NCBI GenBank assembly: GCA_022578965.1
Contig: MU400525.1
Coordinates: 1 to 64,000 of the forward strand
Direction of reading: 5' to 3'
DNA length: 64,000 bases
From: Xylaria sp. FL1777
Taxonomy: Eukaryota > Ascomycota > Sordariomycetes > Xylariales > Xylariaceae
Under the pieces are notes generated by a model, which saw only the letters and a program-made list of their open reading frames with translations, was not told the origin of the DNA and searched no databases. How positions within the stretch are numbered: position 1 is the stretch's first letter; each line of letters opens with the position of its first letter. Position numbers and translations under genes: made by a program. Positions 21,202 through 34,752 of the stretch are shown one piece after another.

Positions 21202-23235
21202 ATGGAGAAGCTGGCGCTGAGTAGTGATCCTGCGGCGCGGTCACACGCGAAGAAATGCCGGTGGAGCGTAAGACTTGCCGGTATCGCTTTGGCCCTCGTC
21301 ACGATTAGTTTATATGCCGACATCCCGAGTTCCGCATACGAAAGTCTTCGTTCTCATCAATACGAGGCCCTAACTGGGAGCTGTGCGGTATCTTCTCCGT
21401 ACGGTCGATTCCCCGTGCCTGACGATCCCTTCCAATTTCTTCCGTGCACGAATGCGACCAGACCACCGGCGCTCGATGATCCAAAACCCCGACGATCGTG
21501 GGCGCGGCTCTTCGACCCGGATCCCGATCACTGGAGTTGGGGTCGCACCGTGGCCCAAGATGCTACGCAAGCAGGCGACAAGTACTCAGGACGTGGCATC
21601 TACATGTGCGGCTATTTCGATGTCCCGCTCGACTATAAAAATCAGTCCGAACCGCGCATTGCCCGTCTCGCCGTCACTAAGTTCCAAGTGTCTGGTCTTG
21701 CACGAACCGATTCGCACATCGACACGAGTGTGGGCCCGCGCCCAGGGAGCAAGAGTAAGAGGACAATCGTGATTGAACCGGGCGGTCCGGGTGGGAGCGG
21801 CACGGCATACGCGTGGCGGGCCGCGGAAAACATAACAGAGCGCTTGAGCGATGGCCAGTTTGATGTCTTGGGCTGGGACCCCCGTGGTGTAAATGCGTCG
21901 TTGCCAGCCGCTTCTTGCTTTCCCGGCAATGCCTATCGTGACCGGTGGTCGCTGCTCACGGGGCAATACCGAGAGGTATCCGCTACTGCTGAGTCGCAGC
22001 TTGAGCTTGCGGACGCCATGAATGCAGCGCTCTTCCGGGCTTGCTGGGAACGAAATGGCGATCTCGGAAGATTCGTCAGTACTGCACTTGTGGCTCGTGA
22101 CCTCGAGGAGATTCGCAAAGCGCTTGGAGAAGATGAGTTGACCGGCTATTTGGTTAGTTACGGCACAGGCATCGGTCAGACTTACGCCAATATGTTCCCC
22201 AACAGCGCTGGTCGCATGATTCTTGACGGCACTGAATATGTTAGAGATCATCGCCTTCTGGGAGGTTTTGGTTGGACAGCGCTCGACAATGCCACAGATG
22301 CTTGGCACGATGGCTTCCTTGGAGAGTGTATCAACGCCGGCCCAGAGTATTGCGCGCTGGCTCGATCTAAGGATGGCAATAATGTGACCCTCGAGGACCT
22401 AGAGAGACGGATGAATGGCCTAATAACGTCTCTGATTTCGCGGCCGCAGCCCGGTTACTCGGAATCAAGCGGGCCTTCGCTCGTAACCTACTCTTCCCTA
22501 GTCGGCGGTATCTACGGGGCTCTCTATAACGCCGAGACGTGGCCAACCACAGCACAAATGCTATATGAACTCGAAGGCGGTAACTCCACGCTCTTTACTG
22601 AGCTGTTCGACAAGGCCGAATGGAAATACGATCCAGCATCAACACCCTCGCCCTTTCCCTATGTGCCAGGGGATGACCTTAGTGCCCTTGTGATATGCAG
22701 TGATTCTTACGATGCCCCTATGCCAAGCGACGGACTTGCGTGGTGGGCGTCTCTGTGGGCTAACATGACTTCCAAATCCTGGATCTCAGGCAACTCTCGT
22801 TTCTTTAACGTGTTCCCTTGTCGGCACTTCGCCACTTATTGGCCTGAGCCCGCCGAGGTGTACCGCGGAGACTTGAATCACACATTGAAACACCCAGTCC
22901 TACTGATCGCGGAAACCTATGATCCGGCCACACCACTGCGTAATGGAAGAAGACTACTGGCCGAGATGGGGTCGAATGCCCGGCTTATAGTCCATCACGG
23001 GTATGGACACTCCTCGAGAGACAAATCTTCCTGCACGGATGAAATAGCCAAGGCTTACATACTTGAGGGGAAACTACCCAAAGAAGAGGAAACAGCTTGC
23101 TATGCCGATGGAAAACCCTACCTTTATAACACCCAAGCTACTAACGTAGGCTCAAAAACCATGGCCGAGATGGTGACTTTATGGAGAGAACAGATTCAAG
23201 AAGTCGCATATTTCAACCCTAGAATACTACCTTAG
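21202..23235 (+). CDS. Membrane-anchored alpha/beta hydrolase, TAP-like (tripeptidyl aminopeptidase family)
   Basis: One intron-free frame of 677 residues. A single hydrophobic segment near residues 25-43 after a basic N-terminus makes it a type II membrane protein with the catalytic part outside the cytosol. The hydrolase fold shows the oxyanion region EPGGPGGSGT (about residue 192), LGWDPRGV, and a nucleophile elbow with Ser in LVSYGTG. The TAP-type C-terminal domain has ETYDPATPLRNGRRL with the acid Asp and HHGYGHSS with the catalytic His. Several N-glycosylation sites (NITE, NATD, NMTS) fit secretory passage. Relatives are fungal hydrolases annotated as proteases of the TAP family; the real substrate is unknown. 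The first Gly of the G-x-S-x-G elbow is replaced by Leu. Confidence 0.88.
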   Translation: MEKLALSSDPAARSHAKKCRWSVRLAGIALALVTISLYADIPSSAYESLRSHQYEALTGSCAVSSPYGRFPVPDDPFQFLPCTNATRPPALDDPKPRRSWARLFDPDPDHWSWGRTVAQDATQAGDKYSGRGIYMCGYFDVPLDYKNQSEPRIARLAVTKFQVSGLARTDSHIDTSVGPRPGSKSKRTIVIEPGGPGGSGTAYAWRAAENITERLSDGQFDVLGWDPRGVNASLPAASCFPGNAYRDRWSLLTGQYREVSATAESQLELADAMNAALFRACWERNGDLGRFVSTALVARDLEEIRKALGEDELTGYLVSYGTGIGQTYANMFPNSAGRMILDGTEYVRDHRLLGGFGWTALDNATDAWHDGFLGECINAGPEYCALARSKDGNNVTLEDLERRMNGLITSLISRPQPGYSESSGPSLVTYSSLVGGIYGALYNAETWPTTAQMLYELEGGNSTLFTELFDKAEWKYDPASTPSPFPYVPGDDLSALVICSDSYDAPMPSDGLAWWASLWANMTSKSWISGNSRFFNVFPCRHFATYWPEPAEVYRGDLNHTLKHPVLLIAETYDPATPLRNGRRLLAEMGSNARLIVHHGYGHSSRDKSSCTDEIAKAYILEGKLPKEEETACYADGKPYLYNTQATNVGSKTMAEMVTLWREQIQEVAYFNPRILP

Positions 23236-24399: not shown

Positions 24400-27300
24400 A
24401 TGTTCCGGTTTTTGTGCTTAGTTTTCGGCACTCTGTTGCACTTTGGTCTCTCATCCAACACGATCGGTGTTAAGGTTAATGATAATGGTGACTTGCAAAG
24501 AGTTAATCCAACACGGTGGAATGAAGTCCAAATTACGAATAAACACTCATTTATTGAGGATCTGGTTTCGAATATGACTGTTGAAGACTTAGGTATACTA
24601 AGCTCCACTAACATTTTTGGGAAATGACCCTGCTGACGGGTCACGTTCAAGTGCTACAACTTCACCTGATGTTTGGGGATGACATCGTAGGCGCAAACTC
24701 ACAAAATGAGCTTTATGGTAAATTCAGCAGCATGAAATATCGGACTAAGCTCATTTGAGTTCAGACTTTACGATGCGACTAAGTCCTAACTCTCCCATAG
24801 GTGTCATGCATGATTGGTACATCCTGAACACGCTTCTCCGTGTCATTAGCTCCCACTAAGGCGAAGACAGGTACCCGCTCAAAACATCTCATTACAACTC
24901 AGTTCAAGAGTTGAACCTCAAAAAAGCCAGACTGAAAGTCCCGTTCATGCATATAGGAGAGTGCCTACATGGAGTCGGATCTTTTAAGCAATCGATATTT
25001 CCGCAGAGCTTAGGGCTATCGGCGAGTTTCGACACTGACCTAGTAAATCGTGTTGGTCGTGCAATAGGGACCGAAGCTAGATCAATTGGAATTCATGCTT
25101 GTTTATCTCCAGTTCTAGATCTTGGTCAGGACCCTCGATGGGGACGAATGCAAGGTATGGGCGATGATTAGGTGCGGGCATATCGTCCTTTAGCTAAGTC
25201 GAACAGAGGCATGGGGCGAAGACAAGACCCTCACGTCTTACAGTATGTACACACTGGAGTCATTTCTTCCCCTTTCTAGTAGCCTGAGGACTCCCAATAT
25301 GTCTCGGGAGCATGCATCAGGGGCATAGTATTCACCCAAAAGAGTAATTACTGACTCCAGCGAGCATAGTGGGCGTAGCATATGCGAGTGGACTATCTAA
25401 GAATAGCTCGTGGTCTGACCCTAACGCTGTTGTGCCTGTCCTGAAGGTATGACTATGGTTCCTTCGTAAGGGCCGTCAAAATAGCTGAATAGTGGCGGTC
25501 CAGCATTTCGCCGCTCACGGCTCTCCGCAGGGAGGGCACAACGCTGCGCCGTTCATGGGGCATGGTAGTCGGCAGGTGCTCCAGGATCTTCTCACCCCTT
25601 TCAAAGCTGCGATTCAGCTGGGAGGTGCAAGAGGTGTTCTGATGTGAGATTTTCACCTCTCTTCAGATGCAATTCTCCTCACTAAACCTTCCCTAGGGCC
25701 TACAATGAGTTCGACGATGTTCCAGCTCATGTAAATCCTCTCTTCTATAAAGCACTGGAAGATTGGGGCTTTGACGGACTTGTCATAGCGGATGATACTG
25801 GTAATGCCCTGAATTTATCTGAGGGTATTATGAACTAATAGAGTAAAGGAATGTCGGAACTTTTCTCTACACATCGAGTGGCCGACTCCCCGGCTGACGC
25901 AATCCGACAGTGGTTCAATGCAGGTGGAATGGTACAGTTTTACGATTACCCATTAGAGACATATCTCAACGTAGGACTCACAATAGTATGATGGTTCGTA
26001 TTAGGTTCAGCTAACTAGCGTATTAGGCAACCAAAAACCTGATATCAAATCATTCCCTTGATATTTCCACCTTACGTTCTCATGTTACGAAGATCCTTGG
26101 AGTTAAATGGGATCTTAACCTTTTCGACGACCCCTATATCTCAGCAGATATCAATCCACTGAAAATAGTCAAAAGCCACCGCAACCTGGCTCTAGAAGCT
26201 GCACAGAAGAGCATAGTCCTTCTAGAAAATAGGAACAAGACTCTCCCGCTGAGCTCAGAGCAACAGGGATTCAAGCGGGTTGCTCTCATCGGTCCTTTTG
26301 GAGATACTCTTAACTACGGTGATTACTCAGGCGCATGGGGTCAATACCCAGCCGACACTGCAGCTAAAACTATACGAGAAGGTCTCCTTTCGTATACAAA
26401 TAGAAGAAATGTTGAGTTGATATCCGCATGGGGTGCTAATAGCTGGGAATATAACGCCCAGTACGTGATTCCGCCATATCTGCTATCAACGCCAAACGGC
26501 ACGGCAGGCGGTCTGTCAGCAACATACTTTGCCAACACTGACTTCACGGCGCCCATGGTATATAAGTTAGAAGTACCGGCACTTGACTGGGGTCTGTATC
26601 CGCCAGATGGCTTACCATATAATAACTTCAGCGCAACCTGGGAGGGCAACTTACGATCTCCGGTTGATCTCAACGTAGACGGCTGGATAGGGGTAGCAGT
26701 GGGGCCAAACACCACAGCCAGACTGTTCATAAACGACGAGTTGGTTTTATCCCAAGGCGTGGACGGGCTCTCGACGTCGAGCACGATCATGGGCAATATA
26801 ATGAACTACGACTACATCTCCAACAACAGCACATCGCCCCCGAGCGGGGCAGTCCCTTTCACATTTCGGAGAGGAAAGATTTACCGTCTTCGAATCGAGT
26901 ACCAAGCCTTCAACCTCTATAAGAAAACCGCAAACGTGAACTCTCTCAATTCGCAGATCCTCTTATTCTGGAATCTCGTCAGTCGGAACGACGATGCCGT
27001 GGATCAAGCCGTGCAGGTAGCAAAGTCCTCTGACCTCGTGATTCTAGCCGTGGGCGCCGCATGGAACAGCGACGGCGAGAGTGGCGACCGAGGTACGCTA
27101 AGCCTATCGCCCAGTCAAGAAGTCCTAGCGCAGGAGATCTATAAGCTCGGCAAGCCTGTCGTACTGATCTTAGAGGGCGGACGGCCCTTTGCCATTGATG
27201 ATTACTACCAGCGAAGCGCCGCCGTGCTAAGCACTTTCTTCCCCGGTCAGGCTGGTGGCCAAGCCATCGCGGACGTACTCTTTGGAAAGGTTAACCCCGG

Positions 27301-27829
27301 TGGAAGGATGCCAGTCTCGGTTCCGAGACATGTTGGCCAACTGCCGGTTTACTACAATTACAAGGAGACTGCCCGCAGGGTCAATTACCTCGATATCGAC
27401 TCAACGCCAGCTTATTCGTTCGGTTACGGCCTATCTTATACTGAGTTTACGGTCCTTGGTTTCGAGGCCCGAGTCGTCGGATCATTGTCTAGAAGTGATC
27501 CCGATTTCACATCAGGCGATACGGTCATTTTCACGGCGCGCGTCAAGAACGTAGGCTCAGTAGACGGGAGCTATGTGGCGCAGGTTTATAGCCTGTCCCG
27601 TGTGTCGTCAATTGTACAGCCGGTAAGGCAGCTCGTTGCGTTCAAAAGGAAGTACATAGGACCAGGTCAAGAAGCGACGATAGAGATGGAGTTAGACGTC
27701 GACCAATATCTCACGATCCTCAATCGCCAGTATGAATGGGAGCTTGAAAGGGGTGCTTATACGTTTGCGCTCCTTGAGCATGGAGGTGCTACTGACAGTA
27801 GCGTGAACGTTACTATGCGGGGTATTTAG
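24400..27829 (+). CDS. Secreted GH3 beta-glucosidase-type enzyme with PA14 insert, ten exons
   Basis: No single frame covers this gene, but ten exons join in phase into 946 residues: 24400-24592, 24652-24717, 24801-24816, 24871-25154, 25207-25242, 25370-25446, 25504-25643, 25697-25800, 25849-25970 and 26027-27829. All nine introns are GT-AG. A signal peptide (MFRFLCLVFGTLLHFGLSS) starts the protein. The GH3 N-domain includes GECLHGVGSFKQSIFPQ, SPVLDLGQDPRWGR and the nucleophile segment VIADDTG (Asp303 by alignment). A PA14 domain lies at roughly residues 500-640 (GLSATYFANTDF onward), then the GH3 C-domain (LALEAAQKSIVLLEN before the insert; GERGTLSLSP-like region after it) and a fibronectin-III-like end. 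GH3 enzymes release terminal beta-linked sugars. The third exon is only 16 nt. Intron 5 is an introner-like element (see separate entry). Confidence 0.92.
25243..25369 (+). repeat. Introner-like element, copy 1 (intron 5 of the GH3 gene)
   Basis: A 127-nt GT-AG intron (GTATGT...CATAG) with a CTGAC branch site, splitting an ATG codon as A|TG. It matches intron 2 of the MFS gene at 33782-33908 without gaps at 109 of 127 positions; most differences are transitions. A perfect 8-nt inverted repeat (CTGGAGTC at 25254-25261, GACTCCAG at 25353-25360) and inner stems (intron positions 41-45/75-79 and 49-53/64-68) predict a long hairpin. Near-identical introns in unrelated genes define introner-like elements. 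Confidence 0.9.
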
Positions 27830-28058
27830 CGATAGAAGTTACCATTGCGCGCTACCGCAGATCTTAAGACTCAGCAGCGTAGTTATTTGGGACAGACTCT
27901 AGTAGTTCATTGAAGTTGAGAGGGAAGATACTGAAATTATGAGCCAGTTAGCTACGCGCGTCTTCCCCTATAGAGCATCAACTTCACCGATAGTGGCACT
28001 TCGAGTCCTGAATTCGGACTTGATCCTAGTTGCTTTTAGATTAGGCTTATAAGCCTCC

Positions 28059-28193
28059 TTATCTCATTACTTCTTCAACCTCTGGCGCTGTAATATACAC
28101 CCACAGTGCACAATGGTCGTCATCGATAGGATAAGTGTATTGCTTGCGGAAATCCTTGAAGCTGTACGGCAGCTTCTTAGCGAGGTCATCCAT
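28059..28193 (-). pseudogene. Short coding-like frame, possible terminal exon or gene fragment
   Basis: A 44-codon frame from ATG at 28193 to TAA at 28059. The translation looks like real protein (KLPYSFKDFRKQYTYPID, then CALWVYITAPEVEE). Upstream, TTTAG directly before an in-frame continuation could be a splice acceptor, so this may be the last exon of a gene whose 5' part I could not find. The rest of 27830-28588 holds nothing recognisable. Confidence 0.3.
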
Positions 28194-28588
28194 TATGTAT
28201 ACCTAAAGACTTTATAAGTGTAGCTTTCGAATGATTCAGCTTTAGAGTGAGTAGCATGAAATAATCTCTTCTTGCTGATACTTACGTAATCTACCCTCTC
28301 TTATTTCGCCTTTATGTATAATTGCTATGCATTTTCTTTGTTTATTTCATTTGTTATAGGAAGCTTATAACGCATGTGTGCTTTTTATTGTTCTCTATCC
28401 TTTCACGAGGTCCCTTTATATGGTCATATCTCCTCCTTCGTGATATGGTGTCTCTTGTTGCCGCTCATTCTCCCCTCCTGCTTGAGATGTACTGCCTGGT
28501 CTGAATGTTCTCCACCTCAATTTCTCAACGTAAATTGATTATAACGCTAAAGTCTTGCAGGATCTATAGATAAAGTCCATGTCGACTA

Positions 28589-29917
28589 TCAAATAGACTC
28601 AAGCACTGGAGCCACGATTTGGGGTAGCGGATACTTATAACGGCGGCCGTCTTCATCAATAAGCTTATCCAGCCCAGGACAAACAACTATCTTGTTCAAC
28701 CCTTCGTCGCTCTCAAATCGAAAGCGGTACTCAGAAGGCTGTGAGAAAATGACGTAGCCAAACGTAGCACATTCCGTAATGACCTCACGAAGATGGTTCT
28801 CTTGCTCATATCTCTCCTCTCGGTCACTGGAGATGAATGGCTGGAGAAATCGTACCAAAGCAACTGTCAGTTTCTGTGCTTGCTGCGTGCTCATATCCTC
28901 TGAGGGTTCAAGAGGTGTACGCTGGCTCCGGTTCGGATGAAGCAAGAACGCCGATAGTTGCCGCCATCGAGCAATGGCAAGCTCGGTGGCTATTCACAGT
29001 CAGACTCATTGAGAGGATACCTAAATTTGGGCGGCTTTCTTACCTTCATTGCTCGCTCCATTACTATTAGATATTGGGAAGCCTTGACTCAATGCTGGAG
29101 CCATATATGGAAGCAGAGAAACACAGGCACTCCCACCGATGACTGTGCTTTCGAACGCCGCTTTGGTGATCACATACCGAATCGCACTAAGCCGCGTTCG
29201 TGGCTCCAGTACAAGTGACGCAATTCTCGCAATAGCTGGTGCACGATCTCTTTCTATTCCTAGATCTCTCAACGGTTCCCGTAATTCGCTTGATTCGAGC
29301 TGGACTGGTTGCAAATGGTAATGCATTTCGGTATGCTCTTGAACGAGACGATTCAGGGAGCGAAGCTCGTTAGCCAATGTAGGATCAGGCGTGGAATCTA
29401 GTAGAAACTGATCAAGTTGTAGTCCGCCTGTAGTAATAGGACTAGCCGCAAGCTCCTTCTCTCCATCAGAATATGTCACATATTCCGGTATAGGTCCGCG
29501 TCTCTTGCGACGTCTACCAAGAAAGAGACCCGCAACGACACCTAATATTCCTCCAGCCAGGGCGGTCGCTATCGATATACCAGCTACAGCTCCATTACTC
29601 AAGCTAGGAGATTTGGTTGCAGCATGAGATATTTGTTCTGACGTAGTACTAGGTGATGGTTGGGTGGTTGAAATGCTCGTGGCTAGAGTCGTAGTAGCAG
29701 GGCTCAACAGCGTAGTAGGAACCGTAGGAGGAACCGCAGTAGGAACCGCAGTAGGAATCGTATTTGCAAACGTCCACCAATCCTCGGTCACCAAATAAGG
29801 CACAGGAACACCATTAGGGCCAGGGGAAAAAGTGTATATCTGTACGATCTCGTACGATGTTGAAGCAGTCCAAGTTGTAGAAAGTGTAGAGTAACTCAAT
29901 CCCGTTGTTTGTGCCAT
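28589..29917 (-). CDS. Signal-anchor membrane protein with Thr/Pro-rich ectodomain (hypothetical)
   Basis: Exons 29917-29044 and 28989-28589 give 424 residues, split by a 54-nt intron. The first ~115 residues are rich in Ser, Thr and Pro, with a short imperfect repeat (TIPTAVPTAVPPTVPTT) suited to O-mannosylation. One transmembrane helix follows (about residues 113-135, GAVAGISIATALAGGILGVV) and then RRRKRR, so the larger C-terminal part (about 290 residues) is cytosolic. There is no classical signal peptide, which makes the helix itself the likely signal anchor. The layout recalls fungal Mid2/WSC-type wall sensors, but the Cys-rich WSC domain is absent. The function of the C-terminal region (residues 290-424) is not recognised. 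Confidence 0.75.
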
Positions 29918-32441
29918 TCTGAAGTGCGCGTAGCGATGGAGAATAAATTGAAGGGATCAAAATTTCCAGGCGAAAAATAGAATATACTGACAAGTATGAA
30001 CAGAGTAGTCGAGAGATGAACTCCTAAGCCTACTGTGGCGACACTGCTAATGGAAACAACATATAACCAGTACTATCTTTAGTTAGAATCAAGATAGCGA
30101 AAGTTGTGGATAATAGCCACAGCAACTATGATATAATTTTATATATAGATATATACATGTCTTACCGGGAATGAACGGCTGTAGCCTGCTTCTCCTTACC
30201 CCCTGGTAATATGCAGCTTGGGCGGACACAGCCATTCATAATCTCCAATAAGCAATTTCCAGACAGCCACTTAGCTTCATTGAAAAAGTTTGCTCAAAGC
30301 CTGCTTTATTTCTGGTGGCACCGTGTACTTGGAACCTTTGTTTGGGGTTACATTTGCGCAAACGCTCTCACTCGTCGCTGTCCCGGGTGAGCCGAATTTT
30401 CGAACGAGGACATCGTCAGATAACAACATCGGACGGAAGAGATCTCAACAAAATGAGTCAACTTTTACCCTCGCATATTATTCAGCCTTTTCTAAGTTGA
30501 ACCTAGCTAACATGGAGAGTCTCGTATTGGATCCTTTATATGGTTCTTATTAGCACGAATGCATCGCTCGTCTTATTGCTGTCCAGTTATATATAAGTGC
30601 CTGTTCTGTGAGGCAGGCTCTGCACCTCCTATAGTTCATTTCCTCACCCGATTGTTCGTGCGGAAAGAATGCTTGGTAAGGCGTCCTAGTACACCGTGGA
30701 GGCGGAGCTCGTCTTCTCCAATCATAACTCACAGCCATTCTTCCAGGCTACGTCTATTCTATGTGCAGTGCGACATAGCTACAGGCGATAACTTAAGAGG
30801 CGCATTGTAGACACTAGTTCTTATTGGACTGTCTCACTCTCGAGGTGTTGTGGTTTTACAGATCAGTGTGCTTTGTTACTGTGATACATTTCTTCACGTC
30901 GGATACAATACTAAACAGCAAACCACAGAACGACCGCACCCTCGGGACATAATCGATACAGGCAAACAAACGAATTATATTTACTGACCGTGCGACGCGG
31001 GACTTCACTGGCCAGCCTCATGACGGTGATAAGCTTTATCACTTCATGTTCCTCGATATTGTGAGGCTTGGGGATGTTGTGGCACTTCTATGACACGCCC
31101 ATTAGTGCGATTTGCCGTTAGCCGAAGCCAATTTTTGAGGGCCAGCTCTCACGATTTCTCAATTACGCCCTCGGAGCCGCGACTATGAGCTGAAAACTGC
31201 AACATATTATTATAGGCTTTAATCCTATATCTCGTTGCAACCATCTCCCAGAATGGTACAGCCCGGCGCGGCCGACCACATTCTACTAGGTGCGGTGCAC
31301 TCCTTTCCTTTCCGATAATTTCATGCTGTGATACCTCCCCTCCATCCACGTACATGGCTGCCTTGATAATGGAACTAGTTACAAGCGCCGGAATTTGTAA
31401 AGCTAAAACGGCTGCTGTTCATTGAAGCCAAGAACGTTAACCATGCTCACTGTTAAGATAGGTCTAATAGGCCATGCTGAAAGTATGCATTATCGCGTAA
31501 ATAGCCTGGAATTACATAATAGAGAGATATTTGACTCAATACACAAAACACACTCTCTGTTCCCTTGCCGTATGCCTCTCAAAATTAATCATCTCTGTAA
31601 CTATAGGGTATGCGTGAATTTAGTATACCCGAGCATGGAGCCGCCCAAGCTTAGTTCTGACAAGACTATTTGAATAGTGGCAAAACAGATAGCAGATGAC
31701 AAGGTCTTGCATATAGCTTGTAAAGTAATAAGTTCATGGCACTTAACAAGTTATCGATCTCTAGATTAGCTTCGCTGCATGTTTTGAAACATACAGAAAC
31801 GAGTTAGCCATTACCATCCACCTGTGTTGCCTTCTTCTAATGTTCCGACATTAGAAAAGAACAGATAAGAGCATTTAAATTATCTATCGCTTGCTAGTTA
31901 ATTGGGGTTATTCATAGTTTCAAATTCGACATAGGAAGTGTTGGAAAGGCAGGCATCGTCTCTGCTGTTGCTGGTTTTCATCTACCGCTACTCATCTAAC
32001 TTAGCCTTAGCTTTCTCTCTTTCACTAATGTTTTTTATCATACTATTAGTTACATTAAAATTACCCGAACAATTAAGTCAATTCTATTTTATTTGATCTT
32101 CTGACGTGACATCTAAGCCGCTTTGCCATGTAGATGAAGAATGTATTTAGGCCAAACAGCTAGCCCCTTTCATAGTTCGTCCACAAGTGCCAATTATGCC
32201 CTGTGAAGAATGATGTAGAAGACAATAAACAAAGAAATTATTGAAATGAATAGCTTTGGACTCCAAAACAAACCCATTGTTTCTCTATCACCAGAGGAGT
32301 ATAAATTCATTTTAATTTTCCGTACTCTCAGGGCGTCTAAACTCAACAGCTATCAAACCACAACACAATCCAATCATCATAAACATCTCAAAGGCTTATC
32401 CAAGAACCACGCACATCTGATCCTCTAATCATCCAATTATC
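29918..32441. other. Intergenic region, nothing recognised
   Basis: About 2.5 kb upstream of the signal-anchor protein gene. Only short frames without domains are present. The last 140 bases are CA/TC-rich and look like the 5' leader of the following small gene. Confidence 0.5.
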
Positions 32442-32690
32442 ATGCCTTCCCTAAGAATCGAAGATGCCCGAGGGCGCTGCATATCTGTTTCAGCCAGTGC
32501 TTCGGAAGAAGAGGTAAAGGCAAAAGCTCGAGAATTCTTGATTACCTGCGATGTTCGCGACAACTCCCGGAGGACATTTGGTGGCAGCGAATATTCAGAC
32601 GAGGCAATCGCAAATGCCAGGGCCGCAAGGGCGGGCAATTCCATAGGTCTGTCATTCGGGAATGACACTTACACTGCAAAGTGGTGTTAA
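32442..32690 (+). CDS. Small 82-residue protein of unknown function
   Basis: A single frame of 82 codons with an ATCATG start context. It is preceded by a C/A-rich, ATG-free leader typical of well-expressed fungal genes and by a TATAAA-like sequence about 140 bp upstream (32300-32306). The protein is soluble, with a charged helix (SEEEVKAKAREFL, about residues 21-33), a conserved-looking centre (RRTFGGSEYSDEAIANARAA) and a Gly/Asn-rich end. I recognise no domain. The complementary strand is also open over nearly the same span (32429-32668), but its product is low in complexity and I take the plus strand as real. Confidence 0.6.
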   Translation: MPSLRIEDARGRCISVSASASEEEVKAKAREFLITCDVRDNSRRTFGGSEYSDEAIANARAARAGNSIGLSFGNDTYTAKWC

Positions 32691-33047
32691 CGGCATTCGA
32701 GGGCCATACCATGAATACTTGAACTTTAGTCGCTAAGTTGTTTTTCCTCCCGTTTCCCTAAACTAACTATTCAAATACAATTTTCTGTCTAATCTGCTAA
32801 TAGTTCCCCCCATAGTGTGCAGCGAGCGTACAAAACATCCGTGAAGATAGGAATCACCCTTTCCAAGTAAGCCCATTTTTGGCTATTATGAGTGTAAACT
32901 GTGACTAAACTAATAGACACAGATATGTAGGATAAGTAGATAGGCGTATTGCGCCAATTATGGATAATTTATCTAACACTGATCTTGTAGTACTGAGAAA
33001 ACCTCTTACAGGATTTGCTAGCCTGTCTCCTGACGGGAACCTTAGAT
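32691..33047. other. Convergent intergenic gap
   Basis: The gap of 357 bp separates the ends of two convergent genes. Nothing is recognised in it. Confidence 0.5.
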
Positions 33048-34752
33048 TTACTGGTGCAGAGAAACCCTTGAGGTAACTACCGTCTTCCATATGAAACTTG
33101 AGCAGCTTAAGAGCGCGGTAACCCCAGTATACACAATCAACGTGCCAAATCCACTTCCGTATCCAGCACCTGCATGTCCTTTCCATGCCATATCTTTTAC
33201 AAGGGCATCGCTGAGGGGTCCAGAGACCAAACTACTAACACCACGCCCAGCGCACAGCCAGCCAAATATCATCGTAGGGTCGACTGCACCAGCTTCTTCC
33301 GCTTCGCGATTCCGTCCTAATGCACGCATGATCCCCGGCCAAGTCGCAGTAAAGGAACCCGCGAATAGGCCATACATGATGCAAAAGACGTACAAGACAG
33401 CTATTGAGGAGGACAATCCCCACGCGACGAAGACACCTAGAGTCGCGCCCACTGACGAGATCAGAATGCAGGTGGTAGCCGGAAGCCGATCTGTTAACGT
33501 CCCCATGATAACAGACCCAATAGTTGTCGATAGATTAATAAGAAGTACCGTAAGCGCGGAGAGGAAGCCTGACGCGCCCAGAACTGTGCGAGCATAAGTT
33601 GGAAGATATAGCCCGGGTACTAATTCATGAGGATGTGAGTATCAAAGGCTTGTCACATTCGCAGCCGTCCGGCTCTGCTAGAGTAATGACTTACTGAAGT
33701 GACCTGTCCCCTGCACGAGATTGCCAAGTTGGTAGGGCGCAAACAAACTCGAGAACAAGAATCTGACGTTCCAGGGCCGCACTATGTTCGCTAGAGTCAG
33801 CAACTACTCTTTTGGGTAAATATTATGCCACTGATGCATGCTCCCGAGAAATGTTGAGAGTCCTCAGGTTACTAGAAAAGGAAGAAGACGACTCCAGTGT
33901 GCACATACTAGCTACGGCGTTGCTCGGCGGTAGACGAGGTTTGATGAATACCGACAGCGGGGCACAGATGATGAAAATGGCGATGCCACTAGCGCGCAGT
34001 GTGGTCTTGTGGCCATACTCTGCGAGCAATTGCTGAAGGATGAGAGGTATGATGGCACTTGCTAGTCCTTCGCCGCTCCAGACGATGCCATAAGCCATTC
34101 CTTTGCGTGCCGCAAACCACTCGTCTATGTAGAGGATTGTTGGACAGTAGGCTATGGCGCCTCCGATGGCGTAGAGTACTCCTTGTAGGATAATCAAGGT
34201 ATTTGTCGAAGTTGCAAGAGACGCGAGAGAGAGCGATAGAGACGTAATGATGAGCCCAATGGGTATTGCATATCGCGTGTACTGAGGATACAGGCGATAC
34301 AGGCCGATCACAACAGGTGAGAATAGGTATAGTAGCCCTGTCGAGGTTGTTCCAATGACGGCGATATTGCCCGATGAAGCGAACGGTTCATGCTGGCTGT
34401 AGTAGTCTTGAAATACACCGAAGGAGAATGTATAACCTGTTTTGGCGTTAGTCGAAATGGTCTCTTCCCTACCTTACTCCTGTTTCTATCCAAGCTGGGA
34501 AAGCAGCTACATCGAGTTGAAGTAGTTGGGATGTCTATATAGAAGGACTTTCATACCCCAAATCAAAGCATCAACAACGAAACATGCAGCGAGGAACAGC
34601 CATGCTTCCTTGCCACCGTCAACGGGCGGTAAAGAAAATTCCGGGTTGCCGTCAGGGCTATTGTCCACCCCTTGCTCAGGCGATCCTAACCGGGAATGGT
34701 CACCGTGATCAACAGTACCGATGGCGACTAGTTCAATTGGCTCTTGCGACAT
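33048..34752 (-). CDS. MFS transporter, monocarboxylate-transporter type, four exons
   Basis: Exons 34752-34557, 34436-33909, 33781-33695 and 33619-33048 join in phase into 460 residues. A polar N-terminus of about 48 residues precedes the first helix (KEAWLFLAACFVVDALIWGYTFSF once spliced, shown here only in part). Family features include SFGVFQDYY, SGNIAVIGTTSTGLLYL, and the loop FAARKGMAYGIVWSGEGL between helices 4 and 5. The second half holds the remaining helices and ends in a short polar tail. Such proteins move monocarboxylates or related organic acids across the plasma or vacuolar membrane; the substrate cannot be read from sequence. Intron 2 is an introner-like element (separate entry). 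Splicing out the last possible intron near 33060 would change only the tail. Confidence 0.88.
33782..33908 (-). repeat. Introner-like element, copy 2 (intron 2 of the MFS gene)
   Basis: A 127-nt GT-AG intron (GTATGT...CATAG on the minus strand), again inserted as A|TG inside an ATG codon. It matches the GH3 intron at 25243-25369 at 109 of 127 positions with no gaps. The outer 8-nt stem is kept: one C-to-T change turns a G-C pair into a G-U wobble. The inner stem at intron positions 49-53/64-68 likewise changes C to T and keeps a wobble pair. The branch site CTGAC lies 14 nt before the acceptor AG. Confidence 0.9.

What the first reader, a model, noticed from the sequence alone, without database searches (positions are those of the whole stretch)
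25243..33908. Two near-identical 127-nt introns in unrelated genes: introner-like elements
Intron 5 of the GH3 gene (25243-25369, +) and intron 2 of the MFS gene (33782-33908, -) have the same length and align without a gap at 109 of 127 positions, while the host genes and all other introns here show no such likeness. Most differences are transitions. Both lie in the sense direction of their host. Introner-like elements, described in some Dothideomycetes and other fungi, are introns that multiply into new genes. The two copies and both reading frames are seen directly; the mobile behaviour is inference. This may be an undescribed family.
Basis: partly seen in the sequence, partly recalled or inferred. 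Interest (0 to 1): 0.95.

Follow-up and report, generated by a model that had tools for sequence, protein, structure and literature searches.

The report
Self-copying introns in a Xylaria fungus
The two look-alike introns belong to a family of about a hundred near-identical introns scattered through the genes of a Xylaria fungus, which seem to insert without leaving a trace at one preferred short DNA motif and so offer a way to test how new introns are born.

Summary
The genome is Xylaria sp. FL1777. Three patterns, each with zero hits for the reversed control, merge to 94 places; a fourth adds one. Of the 94, 88 keep GT..AG at the homologous ends and 60 of those are exactly 127 nt. Mean pairwise identity is 88.5%. 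The deposited GH3 protein is reproduced exactly by nine introns, of which 25243-25369 is the fifth. Copies lie in unrelated genes, biased to sense coding exons.

The exon around the insertion reads YM^TGR; M^TG occurs in 66 of 88 copies against 3.3% of nearby coding positions. The GH3 site predates the intron: 119 of 120 listed proteins (one is the host's own) have the same methionine there. The consensus carries a 9-nt near-terminal inverted repeat. Published Xylariales stwintrons are described as inserting at random sites, ascomycete introners as lacking inverted repeats. New variant of a known kind. An RNA route is preferred but inferred.

The parts
25243..25369 (+). Introner copy 1: intron 5 of 9 of the GH3 gene, 127 nt, phase 1
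   Evidence: deposited protein P0121 is reproduced exactly by nine introns including this segment; the 40 scored of 95 candidate genome matches cover query 1-127 or 2-127
33782..33908 (-). Introner copy 2: intron of the MFS transporter gene, 127 nt, phase 1
   Evidence: 109/127 identical to copy 1; upstream exon matches MFS_1 just under the curated cut-off; downstream exon open in frame
25254..25262 (+). 5' near-terminal inverted repeat CTGGAGTCA (intron nt 12-20)
   Evidence: complementary to intron nt 110-118; 1 of 5000 shuffles of the family consensus has a 9-nt terminal repeat; all 9 pairs intact in 50 of 88 copies
25352..25360 (+). 3' near-terminal inverted repeat TGACTCCAG (intron nt 110-118)
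25351..25355 (+). likely branch-point element CTGAC (intron nt 109-113), overlapping the 3' repeat
   Evidence: sequence shows it directly; the role is inference from the fungal branch-point consensus (recalled)
25241..25242 (+). 5' half of the target motif, exon CA (Y M)
   Evidence: exon -2 C46/T31 and -1 A56/C23 of 88 copies
25370..25372 (+). 3' half of the target motif, exon TGG (T G R)
   Evidence: exon +1 T86, +2 G75, +3 G47/A29 of 88 copies; the split codon is Met in 119 of 120 listed proteins, the host's own included
33909..33910 (-). 5' half of the target motif at copy 2, exon TA
33779..33781 (-). 3' half of the target motif at copy 2, exon TGC (R position is C here)
24400..27826 (+). 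host gene 1: glycoside hydrolase family 3, nine introns
   Evidence: last open frame runs to 27826

Best explanation
This is a young introner family of Xylaria sp. FL1777: a complete GT-AG spliceosomal intron of 127 nt that multiplies as a unit into new protein-coding exons. SHOWN: at least 95 places; unrelated flanks; no detectable target-site duplication, and no gain or loss of codons where testable; a target motif YM^TGR; a 9-nt near-terminal inverted repeat in the consensus. INFERRED: the copying goes through RNA. The excised intron RNA, its ends held together by the near-terminal stem, is put back into the sense strand of a transcribed exon between M and TG (by reverse splicing, or by ligation into a nick or break there), copied into DNA and kept because it is spliced out at once. 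The motif would be read by a trans-acting activity (a nuclease or the insertion machinery), since flanks do not follow the element's sequence.
For: 94 merged places from three patterns, 0 control hits each, one more. 88 of 94 keep GT..AG. GH3 copy removed in the deposited protein. Positive sense coding score above antisense in 51 of 69 copies against 16.35% of 2000 random window points (binomial 6e-26). Spliced sense frame open >= 25 codons on both sides in 60 of 68 copies, antisense 39 of 68, unspliced sense 48 of 68. No TSD: largest z 3.1 among 1584 tests. M^TG 66/88 vs 3.3%, YM^TGR 54/88 vs 0.92% of coding positions. Seamless: no gap in the 14 columns around the junction in the best 120 listed proteins for GH3 (own included) and for the L058 host gene; Pfam profiles run on across the junction in the 3 of 10 copies tested whose matches reach it from both sides. 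Flank bases do not correlate with element similarity or with element variants beyond chance (1 of 495 tests below 0.0025, 1.2 expected). Inverted repeat intact in 50 of 88; intact copies have closer relatives (0.962 vs 0.937).
Against: No RNA intermediate, reverse transcriptase or nuclease was identified or searched for. The motif YM^TGR does not look like the exon context expected for reverse splicing (AG|G, recalled). The open-frame test alone is weak: at >= 15 codons it reads 66 spliced, 59 antisense and 56 unspliced of 68. The stem is not kept after insertion: 38 of 88 copies have broken it, with one compensatory double change seen. Its fold is only weakly better than shuffles (z -1.95 and -1.04). 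Column 24 of the element against base -1 was the one association not reached in 400 permutations, and nearest neighbours match slightly more often than all pairs at -1 (0.568 vs 0.473) and +2 (0.818 vs 0.736, not tested), so a weak link between element and flank is not excluded.
Confidence: 0.66

Rival explanations
1. A non-autonomous DNA transposon without target-site duplication (Helitron-like A^T insertion, or a blunt-cutting transposase) whose ends happen to be splice sites; the motif is the transposase target and the inverted repeat its binding site.
For: Fixed target motif largely independent of element variants, with a near-palindromic core (CATG/TATG); inverted repeat near both ends; A^T in the majority of sites (A at -1 in 56 of 88, T at +1 in 86 of 88).
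Against: Strong bias to sense coding exons is not expected from DNA transposition; no TSD; the repeat is 9-11 nt from the ends, not terminal; the ends GT..TAG are not the TC..CTRR of Helitrons (recalled); none of the 88 copies with both ends is longer than 135 nt, though an autonomous relative was not searched for and could be missed.
Confidence: 0.22
2. Random insertion (capture at double-strand breaks, as proposed for Hypoxylon stwintrons) followed by selection: only inserts whose flanks let the intron splice well survive, and that filter makes the exon motif.
For: The same order has stwintrons described as seamless and random, with a break-repair model (PMC8469720, PMC12403724, sections read).
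Against: Exon +1 T in 86 of 88 and -2/-1 Y,M are not the usual splice-site exon preferences: the eight other introns of the GH3 gene have G at -1 in 6 of 8 and T at +1 in 1 of 8 (a small sample). If the flanks helped by pairing, -1 and +1 would change together, but +1 is T in 86 of 88 while -1 is A in 56 and C in 23.
Confidence: 0.1
3. Old introns at old positions made alike by gene conversion, not by insertion.
For: None found; only the lack of relative genomes leaves it open.
Against: Flanks unrelated; one shared target motif at independent sites; two similar genes carry copies at positions about 11 nt apart; ordinary introns of the same GH3 gene are 47-59 nt long.
Confidence: 0.02

Closest known systems
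[quoted passage not shown] 2021 PMC8469720, results parts 1-2 of 3 read; 2025 PMC12403724, results parts 1-2 of 3 and discussion read)
   Same: Same order; sequence-similar introns in unrelated genes; seamless insertion without TSD; near-terminal inverted repeats of 9-10 nt; type-2 cropped introns are canonical single introns.
   Different: Single 127-nt intron, not two nested ones; different repeat sequence (CTGGAGTCA/TGACTCCAG, not GUAUAAAAAC/GUUUUUAUGU); strong YM^TGR target where those papers report no exon bias; FL1777 does not occur in the 2025 main text. Full stwintron sequences were not compared.
Introner-like elements of Dothideomycetes (Collemare et al. 2015 PMC4457414, outline with abstract and passages seen; van der Burgt et al. 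2012, recalled)
   Same: Multiplying canonical introns of an ascomycete, in genes, species-specific.
   Different: Different class of fungi; no target motif or near-terminal repeat in what I saw; sequences not compared (supplements not available).
Introners of Gozashti et al. 2022 (PMC9860276, passages seen)
   Same: Family of at least 5 full-length similar introns, biased to genes. Their Fig. 2D case (Acanthoeca) has inverted repeats without TSD.
   Different: They state that ascomycete families have no TIRs or TSDs; here a near-terminal repeat and a site preference exist in an ascomycete. No splice-site co-option from the target.
Helitrons (recalled)
   Same: No TSD; insertion between A and T.
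   Different: Ends do not fit; about a quarter of sites are C^T (23 of 88); sense-exon bias.

Membership tests
Introner / introner-like element | many near-identical full-length introns in unrelated genes (5 or more) | tested here: met
   94 merged places, 88 with GT..AG; one more place; flanks unrelated except one overlapping pair and one pair of similar genes
Introner / introner-like element | copies are spliced out of coding genes | tested here: inconclusive
   GH3 copy: removed in the deposited protein and the joined exons match the listed homologues without gap; others inferred from open frames, coding score and 3 profile junctions; no RNA-seq for any copy
Introner / introner-like element | recent gain: position empty in relatives | not testable with these tools
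   no relative genomes; indirect: three pairs differing at 1 of 127 nt in different genes
[D1,2] stwintron | internal intron nested after the first G of an external donor | tested here: not met
   base before the donor GT is G in 4 of 88 copies; one intron at this place suffices for the deposited GH3 protein
[D1,2] stwintron | NTIRE-10 GUAUAAAAAC next to the donor | tested here: not met
   the element has another repeat, CTGGAGTCA; elsewhere in the genome 0 exact and 13 one-mismatch hits, against 3 for the control
DNA-transposon introner with TSD and splice-site co-option | target-site duplication | tested here: not met
   1584 offset/length tests, largest z 3.1
DNA-transposon introner with TSD and splice-site co-option | terminal inverted repeats | tested here: inconclusive
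   9-nt repeat near but not at the ends
DNA-transposon introner with TSD and splice-site co-option | one splice site taken from the target | tested here: not met
   GT and AG belong to the element in 88 of 94; exon flanks are YM and TGR
Helitron | 5' TC and 3' CTRR ends | tested here: not met
   ends are GT..AG; the Helitron rule is recalled
Helitron | insertion between A and T without TSD | tested here: inconclusive
   A at -1 in 56 of 88, C in 23; T at +1 in 86
Rfam families | match to a described structured RNA | tested here: not met
   0 matches at E <= 1 in window 25143-25469; only the GH3 copy was given

The most novel reading that the evidence does not exclude
A fungal introner with a sequence-specified landing site: a canonical spliceosomal intron that is inserted seamlessly and only in the sense of genes at YM^TGR through an RNA intermediate, with a site-reading activity that is not known from any introner I could read about. 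If so, intron gain in ascomycetes is neither random nor DNA transposition but a third, site-directed route that can be reconstituted.
Probability: 0.42. Interest if true: 0.9.

Novelty: new variant of a known kind. Interest (0 to 1): 0.72.

Why it matters
How new spliceosomal introns arise is an old open question, and ascomycete introners are the odd group in the survey I read: no TSD, no inverted repeats. Here about a hundred copies with a near-terminal repeat and a sharp target motif give a handle. The motif predicts where the next copies should land, speaks against pure random insertion, and makes assays possible (which activity cuts or reads YM^TGR, does the intron RNA re-enter there). A protein of this genome is public, so related Xylaria genomes and any RNA-seq could settle recency and splicing quickly.

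Tried and rejected
TSD search over 1584 offset and length combinations: nothing.

Idea that the CA..TG flanks are part of the element (a CACTA-like terminal repeat, CAGTATG/CATAGTG): rejected. It would add 4 nt to the mRNA; the GH3 and short-chain dehydrogenase junctions show no extra residue, and the Met is conserved in 119 of 120 listed GH3 proteins. Non-A at -1 in 32 of 88 also exceeds the element's own divergence, median 6% from consensus.

Idea that flanks are inherited from the parent copy (microhomology copying): no significant correlation; the small excesses are told under evidence against.

Idea of 5' truncation as in LINE copying (copies C19:102835 and C71:7816): rejected. Both fit a shared 12-nt internal deletion that makes a GTAAGT donor (my reading of the letters); one search found one exact match to that start, in C71.

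RNA consensus fold of 28 of the copies: weak, 3 of 27 pairs with a change on both sides; the near-terminal stem is not in it.

Rfam and viral contigs: no match (one 19-nt exact pattern in the viral scan). tRNAs in the window: none found (the tool uses the bacterial code). Stwintron marker in this genome: no exact hit.

First codon model was too weak (it scored the GH3 copy higher in antisense), so it was retrained; the random-point baseline comes from this one window. An earlier count said '7 of 20' for the Pfam pieces; the correct count is 6 of 20 (2, 4). The alignment was made before the copies were oriented and was replaced.

Full report
CHECK. The two segments are as described: 127 nt each, 109 of 127 identical without a gap, 16 transitions and 2 transversions, both GTATGT..TAG, and the only similar pair in the window at E <= 1e-4. 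The window is G000:C20:1-64000 of a 58.7 Mb assembly in 588 contigs. My spliced model of the GH3 gene (961 aa) matches the deposited protein P0121 (958 aa) of Xylaria sp. FL1777 at 100% identity; its contig has 507,626 nt, the length of C20. Taxonomy: Xylariaceae, Sordariomycetes. A neighbouring open frame is 83% identical to a Xylaria arbuscula protein. The deposited protein is reproduced exactly by nine introns: eight of 47-59 nt and the 127-nt segment 25243-25369 in phase 1. So this copy is treated as an intron in the public annotation; whether RNA evidence stood behind that annotation I do not know.

FAMILY SIZE. BLAST scored 40 of 95 candidates; those 40 cover query positions 1-127 or 2-127 at 90-100% identity. 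Patterns from the 5', 3' and middle parts, up to 3 mismatches, give 75, 86 and 75 places, with 0 hits for the reversed patterns; these merge to 94 places on 70 contigs, 50 on + and 44 on -. A further pattern adds C46:283258, which one search also finds. C94:95287 and C15:484672 are further weak candidates, not followed. The patterns used to build the 94 contain no exon base, so they cannot create the exon motif below. All 94 were fetched: 73 with 500 bases or more on each side (two are cut by a contig end), 21 with about 50.

ANATOMY. 88 of 94 have GT and AG at the homologous ends; 60 of 88 are exactly 127 nt, range 105-135 (the six others were left out of the counts below that have n = 88). 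Of those six, two fit a 12-nt deletion that makes GTAAGT, and four have altered or missing ends. Pairwise identity averages 88.5% (66-99%); 504 transitions and 220 transversions against the consensus. The consensus carries CTGGAGTCA at nt 12-20 and TGACTCCAG at nt 110-118; 1 of 5000 shuffles has as long a terminal repeat. All nine pairs are intact in 50 of 88 copies, which also have closer relatives (0.962 against 0.937); one copy shows a double change that keeps a pair (nt 15/115), so the stem is not visibly maintained after insertion. The likely branch point CTGAC overlaps the 3' repeat (inference).

WHERE IT LANDS. A codon score is higher in sense in 79 of 88 copies (76 of 88 with a first, weaker model); 51 of 69 copies with long flanks are positive and above antisense, against 16.35% of 2000 random window points. 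Spliced, the sense frame is open for at least 25 codons on both sides in 60 of 68 copies; the antisense frame in 39 and the unspliced sense frame in 48 of 68, so this test alone separates weakly (at 15 codons: 66, 59, 56). For the 20 hardest copies one sense piece each went to Pfam: 6 of 20 matched; antisense pieces were not searched. So gene and sense bias is strong, but I cannot state that no copy is intergenic. Flank BLAST finds one overlapping pair (two copies 613 nt apart on C8) and one pair of similar genes (77% over 71 nt) whose insertions lie about 11 nt apart by the alignment ends; no other flank similarity was found, with only about 50 nt a side for 21 copies.

TARGET. No TSD. Exon bases next to the intron in 88 copies: -2 C46/T31, -1 A56/C23, +1 T86, +2 G75, +3 G47/A29; beyond that only weak bias, up to 0.23 bits at -7. 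M^TG is found in 66 of 88 copies against 3.33% of 20,330 nearby coding positions; YM^TGR in 54 of 88 against 0.92%. The GH3 site existed before the intron: among the best 120 listed of 1442 homologous proteins, the host's own included, 119 have Met at the split codon, 107 of 120 with His or Tyr before it (94 HM, 13 YM, one further H before Leu), and none has a gap around the junction. At a TA^TC site (L058) none of the best 120 listed of 957 is gapped. Profile positions run on across the junction in the short-chain dehydrogenase (150, then 152 after one split codon; the downstream match is just under the curated cut-off), fructosamine kinase (214 at the last but one residue, then 216) and GH92 copies (132 at the third from last residue, then 137 at the second residue). 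Ten copies were given: these three had matches reaching the junction from both sides, two more (L019, L071) matched one family on both sides without reaching it, five matched on one side or not at all. Flank bases do not correlate significantly with element similarity; of 495 element-column by flank tests 1 lies below 0.0025 where 1.2 are expected, namely column 24 with base -1. Phases are 20/61/7 for 0/1/2, 16/49/2 in 67 copies with the second model, and 8/20/3 in 31 high-confidence cases; phase 2 is rarer than motif availability predicts (p 0.007 against YM^TGR). I have no explanation for that.

MECHANISM. Seamless entry without TSD, bias to sense coding exons and intact splice sites fit insertion of the excised intron itself, as proposed for fungal introners; that step is inferred. 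New here is that the site is chosen. Selection for splicing is a poor reason: the motif is not the usual exon context, as the eight other GH3 introns show in a small sample, and +1 stays T whether -1 is A or C. A trans-acting reader of YM^TGR is the simplest reading; which one is unknown. A DNA transposon without TSD remains the main rival.

COMPARISON. In the Xylariales, Fekete et al. describe sequence-similar stwintrons and derived canonical introns with inverted repeats, inserted seamlessly at sites they call random (PMC8469720 results parts 1 and 2 of 3; PMC12403724 results parts 1 and 2 of 3 and discussion read). The present element is not nested (G before the donor in 4 of 88), has another repeat sequence, and has a sharp target. 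Gozashti et al. state that ascomycete families lack TIRs and TSDs (PMC9860276, passages). Collemare et al. 2015 was seen as outline and passages. FL1777 occurs in one held paper, on metabolite gene clusters (listing only), and not in the 2025 stwintron main text. Searches for introners with fungi, Xylaria, horizontal transposons, insertion sites or target preference listed nothing on this family by title or abstract. Supplementary files could not be read, and a later study on introner transposons that I recall did not appear in these listings.

Noticed in passing
C8:75763-75890 and C8:76376-76503 (L043, L044): Two family copies 613 nt apart in the same orientation, probably in one gene.
   Followed up: partly
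L033 (C2:826523) and L071 (C28:388001): Two similar genes (flanks 77% over 71 nt; L071 matches PNP_UDP_1, L033 was not matched to Pfam) carry insertions at positions about 11 nt apart: probable parallel intron gain in related genes.
   Followed up: partly
88 copies, genome-wide: Insertion phase is 1 far more than 0, and phase 2 is rarer than the availability of the target motif in coding frames predicts.
   Followed up: partly
L066 (C19:102835) and L092 (C71:7816): Two copies appear to share a 12-nt deletion near the 5' end that removes part of the 5' inverted repeat and creates a GTAAGT donor.
   Followed up: partly
intron nt 117-127, e.g. window 25359-25369: A second possible acceptor CAG lies 9 nt upstream of the used TAG, so alternative use would add three codons in frame; not tested for lack of RNA data.
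   Followed up: no
L019 (C59:23012): Copy in an aminotransferase class-V gene at a C^AC site (non-consensus); the motif is a strong preference, not an absolute rule.
   Followed up: partly
window 21202-23235 (+): 677-aa open frame of an alpha/beta-hydrolase (PF00561, PF08386) next to the GH3 gene, with close relatives across Xylariales.
   Followed up: no
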